From contig JAPOZO010000043.1 of assembly GCA_026706025.1 (NCBI GenBank), forward strand, positions 1-64,000: DNA of 64,000 nt, in the 5' to 3' direction. This document shows positions 7,808 through 11,087 of this stretch, one piece after another. This DNA is from Candidatus Poribacteria bacterium. GTDB lineage: Bacteria > Poribacteria > WGA-4E > WGA-3G. A program made the position numbers and the translations under genes. The notes under the pieces were generated by a model that did not search any database, was not told where the DNA came from, and was given only the letters and a program-made list of their open reading frames with translations. How positions within the stretch are numbered: position 1 is the first letter of the stretch; the number at the start of each line of letters is the position of its first letter.

Positions 7808-7837
7808 CCCCCTAAATCCCCCTTATCAGGGGGACTT
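7808..7837 (+). repeat. CCCCCTAAATC-type dispersed repeat
   Basis: CCCCCTAAATCCCCCTTATC followed by AGGGGGACTT. The same unit occurs twice near 18.05-18.12 kb. AGGGGG can pair with CCCCCT, giving a small hairpin. Confidence 0.7.
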
Positions 7838-7879
7838 TAAGACGAAATGTGTCTGTCCTAAATATTTATCAAACTCACG

Positions 7880-7976
7880 TTAGGGTACATATCTGCCTAT
7901 TTTTTACGCGATCAAGGCGAATTTTCGCGCAATACTTCGTGAACTCGGTAAATACGATTTGAAAGCGTACCCTAAC
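7880..7976. repeat. 10-bp inverted repeat before the isrB promoter
   Basis: GTTAGGGTAC at 7880-7889 and its exact reverse complement GTACCCTAAC at 7967-7976, 77 bp apart. The right arm ends one base before the -35 hexamer of the isrB-locus promoter. It could be the ends of a small decayed element or an operator. Confidence 0.5.
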
Positions 7977-8012: not shown

Positions 8013-8314
8013 ATCGGATGTTCCAACCCCTATAGACATACCGCTTTGAAGAGCGGAAGTCTCTGTAACACGCCCAAAACAGGACATATATGATTGGTAC
8101 GGTATAAGATGTCAACTACCCAAGTCTGAAGACTTGGGAAACTTGTGAATATCCGTAGCCACACGGGGACCCACAAGGTAAACGGTTTTCTAGAGTAAAA
8201 TATCGCGTGTCTCGTGGTGGCACACGCACAGACGGTATAGATGCTCCCCAAGTCTATACCCGCTCTGATACGTGATCTCGAAGGGGCAACACATAACCCG
8301 AAAGGGAACTTACG
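8013..8314 (+). ncRNA. Probable omegaRNA (HEARO-type) of IsrB
   Basis: About 300 nt of highly structured non-coding sequence directly upstream of isrB, where IscB/IsrB guide RNAs (HEARO RNAs) are encoded. Visible stems: CCGCT/AGCGG (8041-8045, 8052-8056), the perfect hairpin CCCAAGTCTGAAGACTTGGG (8119-8138), GCGTGT/ACACGC (8205-8210, 8222-8227), GGTATAGA/TCTATACC (8234-8241, 8253-8260), and CCC-GAAA-GGG with a GNRA loop (8297-8306). The loop CCCCAAG (8246-8252) can pair with CTTGGG (8133-8138), a possible pseudoknot. In this family the guide is at the 5' end and comes from DNA flanking the left end, here around 8013-8030. The 5' end is inferred from the promoter; the 3' end is set by the start codon and is uncertain. 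Confidence 0.65.
8119..8138 (+). repeat. 20-nt perfect hairpin inside the omegaRNA region
   Basis: CCCAAGTCTGAAGACTTGGG, a 9-bp stem around GA. It is identical to the sequence at 9330-9349. Confidence 0.85.
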
Positions 8315-9340
8315 ATGCACTTCGTTCCTGTCAAAAGTAAAGATGGCGAAAGACTCATGCCGACAACACCGACGCGGGCAGGCATGATGATCAAATGTGG
8401 AGACGCTACACCGTATTGGGATCATGCGGTGTTCTGTATCCGACTTAACAGAGAACCATCGAAACGATTCAAACAAGAGATTGTTGTCGGTGTAGACCCC
8501 GGTAGTAAGAAAGAAGGATTTACAGTGAAGTCTGAAGCACATACTTACTTGAATATGCAAGCAGACGCTCACAATGGTGTTGGTAAGAAAGTCGAGAAAC
8601 GCAGAAGACTTCGCAGAGGCAGACGTTCTCGGAAATGTCCGAACCGAAAGCACAGAACCAACCGTATGGCGAACAAGGAACGTATCCCTGCGGGGACACG
8701 TGCGAGATGGGATTGGAAACTGCGGATCTTAGACTGGTTGTCAAAACTCTATCCTCTGACGCATGTCTGTGTAGAAGATATTAAGGCAAGAACCAAACCG
8801 TATGAAAAGAAATGGAATACCTCTTTTTCTCCACTTGAAGTCGGTAAACAATGGTTCTATGCTGAAATAGTGAAGCGTTGGAAGTTGTTCACCCTTCAAG
8901 GGTGGGAGACGAAAGAGATCCGTGATAGATTGGGACTCAAGAAATCCGCTAAGAAACTTTCAGAAACATTTGAGGCACATTGTGTAGATAGTTGGTGTTT
9001 AGCCTATCATACGATTGGCGGTGTTTCTGCCCCTGATAATACAGACTTGATGTGTGTTTCACCGATCCCAATTGCCAGACGCGAACTTCACAGGCAGAAC
9101 CCTGAAAAAGGGGGTAAACGTCCACGTTATGGTGGAACCACTCAGAATGGTTTGGTAAAAAACACGCTCGTCAAACATATCAAATATGGCTTGACGCGTA
9201 TCAGTGGTTTTGGCAAACGCGGTATTTCTCTCTACGATTTAAGGGGCACCCGTCTTTGCCAAAACGCTAAAACATCTGATTTCAAAGTGCTAAGACGCTT
9301 GAACTTTACTTATAGGAGCGGGTTTTCCGCCCAAGTCTGA
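8315..9340 (+). CDS. isrB: IsrB: RNA-guided RuvC nuclease without HNH domain
   Basis: 341 residues, the usual IsrB size (about 350). Order: PLMP-like N-terminal segment (LMPTTPTRAGMMIK, 14-27); RuvC-I with catalytic Asp61 (VVGVDPGSKKEGF); arginine-rich bridge helix (about 92-114, KRRRLRRGRRSRK); RuvC-II with Glu154 (VCVEDIKA); RuvC-III with His222 and Asp225 (EAHCVDSW); C-terminal target-adjacent-motif-interacting region. Only about 65 residues separate RuvC-II and RuvC-III, leaving no room for the HNH nuclease of IscB, hence IsrB. Known IsrB proteins are omegaRNA-guided nickases. All RuvC acidic residues are intact. The start ATG has GGGA 8 bp upstream. The stop codon lies inside the terminal hairpin. 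No TnpA is nearby. Confidence 0.88.
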   Translation: MHFVPVKSKDGERLMPTTPTRAGMMIKCGDATPYWDHAVFCIRLNREPSKRFKQEIVVGVDPGSKKEGFTVKSEAHTYLNMQADAHNGVGKKVEKRRRLRRGRRSRKCPNRKHRTNRMANKERIPAGTRARWDWKLRILDWLSKLYPLTHVCVEDIKARTKPYEKKWNTSFSPLEVGKQWFYAEIVKRWKLFTLQGWETKEIRDRLGLKKSAKKLSETFEAHCVDSWCLAYHTIGGVSAPDNTDLMCVSPIPIARRELHRQNPEKGGKRPRYGGTTQNGLVKNTLVKHIKYGLTRISGFGKRGISLYDLRGTRLCQNAKTSDFKVLRRLNFTYRSGFSAQV

Positions 9341-9349
9341 AGACTTGGG
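9330..9349 (+). repeat. 20-nt perfect hairpin overlapping the isrB stop
   Basis: Identical to 8119-8138. The TGA stop of isrB (9338-9340) falls in its centre. It ends 19 bp before the glnS start codon and may be the right-end recognition hairpin or a transcript-folding element. Confidence 0.85.
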
Positions 9350-9368
9350 TTTCCAACCCTAAGATTAG

Positions 9369-11087
9369 ATGAAGCATTCAGATCCGCATTTAAAAGAAGA
9401 CATCAACAACACCTCCGACACAAACTTTATCCGTCAAGAGATTGAAAAGGACCTCAAGACAAACAGATATGAGAGTCGGGTGCATACCCGATTCCCTCCA
9501 GAACCGAGTGGCTACCTCCATATCGGGCACGCTAAAGCTATCTGTATTAGTTTCGGGATCGCCGAAGATTATGGTGGACTTTACAATCTAAGATTTGACG
9601 ATAGCAACCCGATTACAGAAGAGAGTGAATACGTAGAAGCGATTAAGCGAGATGTCCATTGGCTTGGATTCGATTGGAAAGATCGAGAATACCACGCTTC
9701 CGACTATTTTGAGGTGCTTTATGGGTACGCAGTTAAACTTATAGAGAAAGGGAAGGCGTACGTCTGTGATCTGACCCCAGACGAAATGCGTAGTTATCGT
9801 GGCACCTTAGTCGCGCCAGGGACAAATAGTCCTTACCGAGATCGGTCCGTTGCGGAAAACTTAGCGTTGTTCCAAGGAATGCGTAACGGCGACTTCCCAG
9901 ACGGTTCCCGCACGCTCCGCGCAAAAATTGATATGAGCAGCCCGAATCTGAATATGCGGGATCCTGTGATGTATCGCATCTTACGCGCAGACCACCATCG
10001 CCACGGCAACAAATGGTGTATCTATCCGACCTATGATTTCACACACGGGCAATCTGATTCAATTGAGGGGATAACACACTCGTTATGCGATGTTCATTTT
10101 CAGGATCACCGTCCGCTCTACGACTGGTTTTTAGAAGCGTTGGAAATCTATCAACCCCGCCAGATTGAATTCGCACGGCTGAATCTCACCTATACTGTTT
10201 TGGGTAAACGGAAACTTCGGGTACTGGTACAGGGTGGACACGTCAGCGGTTGGGACGATCCAAGGATGCCGACACTCGCAGGGATGCGCCGCCGTGGGTA
10301 TACACCTGAATCTATCCGAGATTTTTGCAACCGCATCGGTGTTTCAAAGGCTGATAACCTCATTGAAATGGGGCAACTTGAGTATTCTATTCGTGATGAC
10401 CTGAATCGTCGGGCACCACGTGTTATGGCAGTTCTCGATCCGGTTAAGGTGATTATTGACAACTACCCAGAAGGACAGGTTGAGATGCTCGATGCAGAAA
10501 ATAATCCGGAAGATGAGAACGCAGGCACACGGCAAATCCCGTTTTCGCGGGAAATCTACATTGAACGTGAAGATTTTATGGAAGACCCACCCCGAAAATT
10601 CTTCAGATTAGCACCCGGACGAGAAGTCCGGCTGAAGCACGCCTATTATATCCAGTGCGAACGCGTTGTTAAAGATGAAAATACTGGTGAAATTGTTGAG
10701 ATTCACTGCACCTATGATCCAGAAACGCGTGGCGGTTGGTCGGAAGACGGACGCAGAGTTAGAGGGACATTGCACTGGGTGTCTGCTGAACACGCTGTTG
10801 ATGCTGACGTGCGCCTCTACGATTCGCTTTTTACAGAACGTGAACCCGAAAGTGCTGCAGAAGGCGAAGATTGGATACAGTTTCTGAATCCGAACTCCTT
10901 GGAGATTTTAAACAATTGCAAAGTTGAACCGAGTCTCGCTGACACGCCACCTGAAAGCCGGTATCAATTCCTTCGGATGGGATATTTTTGTGTAGATCCA
11001 GATACAACATCAGAGAAGTTGGTATTCAATCGCACAGTGCCGTTGAGGGATAGCTGGGCGAAGATTCAAAGAGGACAGAAGAAATGA
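9369..11087 (+). CDS. glnS: Glutaminyl-tRNA synthetase
   Basis: 572 residues, class I synthetase charging tRNA-Gln. HIGH motif at 51-54 within [39 protein letters not shown] is the GlnRS tRNA-acceptor and substrate block. The KMSKS position reads LGKRK rather than the usual MSKRK. The C-terminal anticodon-binding beta-barrel is complete. There is no strong ribosome binding site before the ATG (AAGATTAG only), and an IsrB element ends about 10-20 bp upstream. The stop overlaps the gltX start by 4 bp (ATGA). The presence of GlnRS suggests direct Gln-tRNA charging. Confidence 0.95.

What the first reader, a model, noticed from the sequence alone, without database searches (positions are those of the whole stretch)
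8013..9359. Stand-alone IsrB with probable omegaRNA: a compact RNA-guided nickase locus
Seen: all RuvC residues (Asp61, Glu154, His222, Asp225), an Arg-rich bridge helix, and only ~65 residues between RuvC-II and III, so no HNH domain. About 300 nt of strongly structured DNA precede it. Known: IsrB proteins use omegaRNAs and are ancestors of the Cas9 line. Inference: this is an active guided nickase unit in a probable Poribacterium, with no transposase nearby.
Basis: partly seen in the sequence, partly recalled or inferred. Interest (0 to 1): 0.85.

Follow-up and report, generated by a model that had tools for sequence, protein, structure and literature searches.

The report
RNA-guided nickase element inserted at start codon
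A small mobile DNA element that encodes an RNA-guided DNA-nicking enzyme (IsrB) sits exactly in front of the start codon of a tRNA-synthetase gene; its relatives repeatedly choose gene start codons and carry what looks like a replacement ribosome-binding site, which may let them sit at the start of housekeeping genes without silencing them.

Summary
The RNA call is right in kind but misplaced: the omegaRNA scaffold is 8111-8314 and the guide about 8091-8110. It is not stand-alone: it is one copy of a 1,258-bp IS200/IS605-like element (8111-9368), with seven isrB copies in this genome and about 200 matches in the genus. Empty glnS sites in 27 relatives show seamless insertion directly before the glnS start codon; one matches the guide 20/20 with an ATGA TAM. 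New here: 70 of 108 insertions lie at gene starts, often with the host Shine-Dalgarno (SD) stranded on the far side. The right end reads AGGAG, strongly covarying hairpin (isrB stop codon in its loop), 7-10 nt, host start codon; AGGAG persists in elements that lost isrB. I infer a portable ribosome-binding site. Nicking, RNA expression and translation from that site are untested, and no transposase with matching ends was found. I found no description of this arrangement in the open papers searched.

The parts
8091..8110 (+). guide of the omegaRNA = left flank of the insertion (former glnS leader)
   Evidence: Not conserved between copies; 20/20 identical to the empty glnS site of relative G006, followed there by ATGA; no other match with fewer than 3 mismatches in the own genome
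8111..9368 (+). whole mobile element (1,258 bp), left end GTCAACTACCC, right end ...TAAGATTAG
   Evidence: Sharp conservation boundary in seven copies; seamless empty site in 27 relatives
8111..8314 (+). omegaRNA scaffold
   Evidence: Covariation; model R1 179 bits (this copy is in the training set); weak Rfam HEARO 20.9 bits
8119..8138 (+). left-end hairpin CCCAAGTC-TGAA-GACTTGGG
   Evidence: Seven of eight pairs with two-sided changes across the genus
8297..8306 (+). terminal hairpin CCC-GAAA-GGG holding the isrB Shine-Dalgarno-like sequence
   Evidence: Sequence; same arrangement described for DtIsrB SL7 (PMC9581776)
8315..9340 (+). isrB, 341 aa; PLMP, RuvC-I D61, bridge helix, RuvC-II E154, RuvC-III H222/D225; no HNH
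9314..9318 (+). AGGAG, proposed portable Shine-Dalgarno sequence
   Evidence: AGG is the Arg codon here in 79 of 86 copies against 10% of Arg codons elsewhere in the same genes; AGGAG in 65/108 copies here against 1.3% of other windows in isrB; kept in isrB-less elements
9320..9359 (+). right-end hairpin: outer stem GGGTT/AACCC, inner stem CCCAAGTC/GACTTGGG, loop containing the isrB stop codon TGA (9338-9340)
   Evidence: 92.7% of cells paired, covariation score 0.633 against 0.137 in shuffles; fold
9360..9368 (+). 9-nt spacer between hairpin and host start codon
   Evidence: 7-10 nt in 85 of the 89 copies that fit the architecture, 108 examined
9369..9372 (+). ATGA: target site / expected TAM, and start codon of glnS
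   Evidence: Empty sites; NTGA is the DtIsrB TAM (PMC9581776)
9369..11087 (+). host gene glnS (class I tRNA synthetase, Glu/Gln type), followed by a second synthetase gene at 11084
   Evidence: Pfam PF00749, PF03950

Best explanation
The locus is a non-autonomous OMEGA (IS200/IS605-like) element encoding IsrB and its omegaRNA. SHOWN: it is a multicopy mobile element that inserted without target duplication directly before the glnS start codon, and its guide plus ATGA reproduces the empty target. INFERRED from DtIsrB biochemistry: transcription from the host leader yields an omegaRNA whose guide is the displaced host leader; the IsrB-omegaRNA complex recognises an empty copy (guide plus start codon as TAM), nicks it, and so favours restoration or spread of the element. 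SHOWN statistically, function INFERRED: these elements preferentially sit at gene starts, and the right end carries an SD sequence, a foldable hairpin and a 7-10 nt spacer abutting the host start codon. Folding would bring the SD to about 10 nt from the AUG and stand in for the host's own SD, which is stranded 1.26 kb upstream, so that insertion at the start of a housekeeping gene is tolerable.
For: Protein. omegaRNA. Mobility: seven copies in the genome, 38 of 79 relatives with copies, empty glnS sites in 27 relatives, empty dnaN sites in relatives. Target: ATGA 81, GTGA 9, ATGG 6, TTGA 2, ATAA 8, other 2 among 108 insertions. Gene starts: 70/108; host SD motif at -18..-6 in 59% of these against 7% in a control window; at most 24% of non-coding-or-start NTGR sites in the window are starts, binomial p 4e-19. 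Right-end SD. Hairpin covariation. The same right-end layout appears in about 30 of 54 more distant IsrB loci (40-56% identity) on viral contigs and in some cyanobacterial, archaeal and Desulfovirgula-group loci.
Against: No expression, nicking or translation data. About a third of insertions are not at a recognisable gene start. SD retention is only slightly higher at start-type than at other sites (59/70 against 27/38, p 0.13). No Y1 transposase with matching ends was found in the genome. glnS empty sites in this genus show no clear SD of their own, so for this copy there may have been no host SD to replace.
Confidence: 0.8

Rival explanations
1. Ordinary IsrB element: the start-codon bias only reflects a 4-nt ATGA/GTGA transposase target plus loss of insertions inside genes; AGGAG is a coding or transposase-recognition motif without a role in translation.
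For: Target motif is short; about a third of insertions are not at starts; AGGAG overlaps isrB codons in most copies; weak difference between start and other sites.
Against: Starts make up 65% of insertions against at most 24% of non-coding-or-start NTGR sites; AGG is chosen among six Arg codons in 79/86; AGGAG or AAGGA stays directly before the stem in 9 of 10 isrB-less elements that keep the right end, where it codes for nothing.
Confidence: 0.25
2. Host genes are translated by termination-reinitiation: ribosomes finishing isrB at the stop codon in the right-end loop restart at the host ATG about 31 nt downstream; the hairpin serves only transposition.
For: The stop codon lies 30-33 nt before the junction in 95 of 112 copies.
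Against: isrB-less elements keep the SD-hairpin-ATG layout without isrB; in the G058 copies the isrB stop lies upstream of the SD. Both routes may operate.
Confidence: 0.35
3. Domesticated RNA-guided regulator of glnS (TldR-like) rather than a mobile element.
For: Position in the leader of a housekeeping operon.
Against: Catalytic residues intact; site empty in 27 relatives; many copies at unrelated genes with unrelated guides; the sister copy in G015 lost about 330 bp of isrB.
Confidence: 0.05
4. Dead relic with no activity.
For: Activity untested; a 99.5% identical copy at the same site in G015 has lost part of isrB.
Against: Intact ORF, RuvC residues, RNA fold and ends.
Confidence: 0.15

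Closest known systems
DtIsrB and other IsrB OMEGA nickases (Hirano 2022, PMC9581776)
   Same: PLMP-RuvC-bridge helix layout without HNH; omegaRNA directly upstream with the guide at its 5' end; isrB SD inside the terminal hairpin; TAM NTG/NTGA
   Different: Shorter scaffold (204 against 262 nt); about 30% protein identity; that paper does not mention start-codon insertion
IscB / HEARO elements (Rfam RF02033; PMC9755519)
   Same: Same RNA class at the 5' side of the ORF; HEARO model aligns weakly over 8111-8313
   Different: No HNH domain; Rfam score far below gathering (20.9 against 83 bits). From memory, ATGA/GTGA integration of HEARO elements was reported by Weinberg 2009; I could not read that paper here
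IS200/IS605 elements with TnpB (e.g. ISDra2)
   Same: No target duplication, subterminal hairpins, guide taken from the flank, short TAM at the junction
   Different: Mirror-image layout (guide on the left, TAM on the right); no TnpA in the element; right-end SD next to the host start codon
TldR RNA-guided repressors
   Same: Transposon-derived RNA-guided protein near a host gene leader
   Different: TldR is nuclease-dead (own knowledge); this one keeps all RuvC residues and has a different guide at each copy

Membership tests
IsrB | RuvC nuclease with D/E/H/D motif | tested here: met
   D61, E154, H222, D225 invariant in 41 sequences
IsrB | N-terminal PLMP domain and Arg-rich bridge helix | tested here: met
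   RLMPTTP and RRRLRRGRR aligned to DtIsrB
IsrB | No HNH domain | tested here: met
   No HNH hit in Pfam; IscB profile matches only residues 6-158; 68 residues from E154 to H222
IsrB | Closest to IsrB rather than IscB in sequence and fold | tested here: met
   8dmb ranks first
IsrB | omegaRNA upstream with conserved structure | tested here: met
   Rfam HEARO itself is sub-threshold
IsrB | NTG/NTGA TAM next to the guide at the empty site | tested here: met
   ATGA at the glnS empty site; 98/108 junctions are NTG
IsrB | RNA-guided nicking of the non-target strand | not testable with these tools
   Needs purified protein and RNA
IS200/IS605 element | Seamless insertion, subterminal hairpins | tested here: met
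IS200/IS605 element | Encodes or is served by a Y1 TnpA | tested here: inconclusive
   Five Y1 loci in the genome, none in the window and none with matching ends
Rfam HEARO (RF02033) | Score above the gathering cutoff of 83 bits | tested here: not met
   20.9 bits

The most novel reading that the evidence does not exclude
IsrB-family OMEGA elements are start-codon invaders: TAM = start codon, guide = the host's own leader and ribosome-binding site, and the right end is a portable ribosome-binding site in which an SD sequence is brought next to the host AUG by the transposition hairpin. This would let them settle at the starts of housekeeping genes, borrow the host promoter for guide expression, and place host translation under the element's control.
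Probability: 0.55. Interest if true: 0.8.

Novelty: new variant of a known kind. Interest (0 to 1): 0.62.

Why it matters
IsrB is close to the root of the Cas9 lineage, and its TAM was known only as NTG/NTGA from biochemistry. Reading that TAM as the host start codon would explain where these elements live, why genes such as glnS tolerate them, and why the right end keeps a sequence that coding does not require. It gives simple reporter tests in laboratory strains, and a hairpin-bridged SD would bear on how structured spacers work in translation initiation.

Tried and rejected
Rfam at gathering threshold found nothing in the window. My first alignment mixed strands for the minus-strand copies and was redone. 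My first regex misplaced the right junction in some copies (e.g. L001) and missed others; corrected by hand. Y1 transposase loci were checked for IsrB-like ends: none; four of the five look like REP-associated transposases by eye. An SRP-RNA identity for the second domain of isrB-less elements was tested with Rfam: no match. dnaN as an 'essential gene' example was weakened: the two carriers have a second dnaN-like copy next door. Literature searches found no report of start-codon insertion or a right-end SD; Weinberg 2009 and Kapitonov 2016 were not held. The right-end finder used on viral contigs gives extra score for an SD, so counts there are illustrative only, and about 20 of 54 loci gave no convincing right end.

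Full report
WHAT IS THERE. The ORF at 8315-9340 encodes 341 aa. Pfam gives RRXRR at E 8.7e-29. The NCBIfam IscB model matches only residues 6-158 and stays below its cutoff, as expected for a protein without HNH. The closest solved structure is DtIsrB by sequence (E 5e-35) and by fold of an AlphaFold model (mean pLDDT 79.7, E 6e-27). D61, E154, H222 and D225 are invariant in 41 homologues that span Poribacteria, Desulfovirgula and relatives, methanogens and a Syntrophaceae bacterium.

LIMITS OF THE ELEMENT. The genome holds seven isrB copies, one of them frameshifted. Aligned in the same orientation, they become similar sharply at 8111 and end just before an NTGA at 9369. The element is therefore 8111-9368. 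The omegaRNA scaffold is 8111-8314, and the guide is the ~20 nt before it, which differ in every copy. Rfam HEARO aligns to 8111-8313 with only 20.9 bits. A structure drawn from 47 copies has 47 pairs, 30 with changes on both sides, and a covariation score of 0.372 against 0.154 in shuffles and at most 0.063 in slid controls. A model from these copies (R1) scores the window copy at 179 bits; this copy is in the training set, so that score is not independent.

EMPTY SITES. Joining 300 nt from each side of the element and searching the genus gives contiguous matches in relatives. Aligned at the junction, 27 relatives read ...GGTATAAGAT|ATGAAGCATTC or close variants, with no gap or duplication. 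Relative G006 matches the window's 20-nt guide exactly and has ATGA next to it, so it is a predicted target. Relative G015 carries a 99.5% identical copy at the same site with about 330 bp of isrB deleted. A second case, dnaN in G016 and G032, shows AAGGAG...|ATGGAA in empty relatives, so there the element lies between the host SD and the start codon. Those two genomes also have a second dnaN-like copy nearby.

START CODONS. I fetched 80 further copies from relatives and defined both junctions in 108 non-redundant insertions. The right flank begins ATGA 81, GTGA 9, ATGG 6, TTGA 2, ATAA 8, other 2. From the 98 NTG junctions, 67 open ORFs of at least 60 codons, against 29% for other NTGR sites on the same strand, a control that is inflated by in-frame internal codons (p 2e-15). 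In 70 start-type sites the left flank has an SD-like motif at -18 to -6 in 59% of cases, against 7% in a control window at -60 to -48; other sites show 18%. In the window at most 53 of 220 non-coding-or-start NTGR sites are gene starts, so 70/108 is not explained by avoidance of coding sequence alone (binomial p 4e-19). This background rests on a crude gene call in one 64-kb window.

RIGHT END. In 89 of 108 copies the right end reads SD, outer stem, inner hairpin, outer stem, spacer, host start codon, with a spacer of 7-10 nt in 85 of them. In the window this is AGGAG 9314-9318, stem 9320-9324/9355-9359, inner hairpin 9330-9349 with the isrB stop in its loop, spacer 9360-9368, ATG 9369. Pairs are kept in 92.7% of cells, with covariation score 0.633 against 0.137 in shuffles. 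The Arg codon that supplies AGG is AGG in 79 of 86 cases, against 10% of Arg codons elsewhere in these genes. AGGAG occurs here in 65 of 108 copies against 1.3% of other 30-nt windows in isrB. Most tellingly, elements that lack isrB and keep omegaRNA and right end (about 370-490 bp) retain AGGAG or AAGGA directly before the stem in 9 of 10 cases, usually in an A-rich run, and 9 of these 10 abut an ATG. The same layout, often with GGAGG, appears in about 30 of 54 IsrB loci of 40-56% identity on viral contigs (the finder favours an SD, so this is illustrative). Some Methanoculleus, Methanocalculus and cyanobacterial copies also abut the next gene's ATG, and the Desulfovirgula group carries AAGGAGGTG before its right-end hairpin.

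MECHANISM. Shown: seamless mobile element, intact IsrB, structured omegaRNA, guide plus start codon equal to an existing empty site. Inferred from DtIsrB biochemistry (PMC9581776): guided nicking next to an NTG(A) TAM, here the host start codon. Inferred from conservation: the right end supplies an SD that the hairpin brings within about 10 nt of the host AUG, standing in for the displaced host SD. Termination-reinitiation from the isrB stop 30-33 nt upstream is a rival or an additional route. How the element moves is open: no Y1 transposase with matching ends was found in the genome.

KNOWN OR NEW. Membership in IsrB/OMEGA is well supported. From memory, ATGA/GTGA target preference was reported for HEARO elements in 2009; I could not read it. 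The enrichment at gene starts and the right-end SD were not found in the papers searched, which cover open-access PMC only. Because the layout recurs across IsrB elements, it is best read as an apparently undescribed property of a known kind rather than a new system.

Noticed in passing
L273-L282 (isrB-less relatives in the genus): Between omegaRNA and right end they carry a second conserved domain GGGTCAGGTC...GAAGCAGCCC. Its two 8-mers GTCAGGTC and GAAGCAGC equal the internal-loop region of the genome's own SRP RNA (L323), and flanking pairs change together (GGG/CCC to GTG/CAC). Rfam's SRP model does not hit it.
   Followed up: partly
L238 (G015, glnS site): A 99.5% identical copy of the window element at the same site has lost about 330 bp of isrB while keeping omegaRNA and right end.
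   Followed up: partly
L108, L111, L119, L120, L121: A subclade ends in ...GATTAG|ATAA instead of ATGA and is not at start codons; its SD motif is less regular.
   Followed up: partly
window 7811-7883: A 72-bp sequence (CCTAAATCCCCCTTATCAGGGGGACTTTAAG...) recurs at about 90% identity many times in the genomes of this genus.
   Followed up: no
L009-L013: Five Y1 transposase loci in the genome; four look like REP-associated transposases, and L009 looks like an IS200-type TnpA flanked by repeated CTATAAACATGC-like sequences.
   Followed up: partly
L123-L125: In Desulfovirgula and Ammonifex IsrB elements the motif before the right-end hairpin is AAGGAGGTG, a full complement of the usual 16S rRNA tail.
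   Followed up: partly
L203, L204, L207 (G014, G016, G032): dnaN-like genes appear in tandem pairs about 1.3-1.5 kb apart in several genomes of the genus.
   Followed up: no
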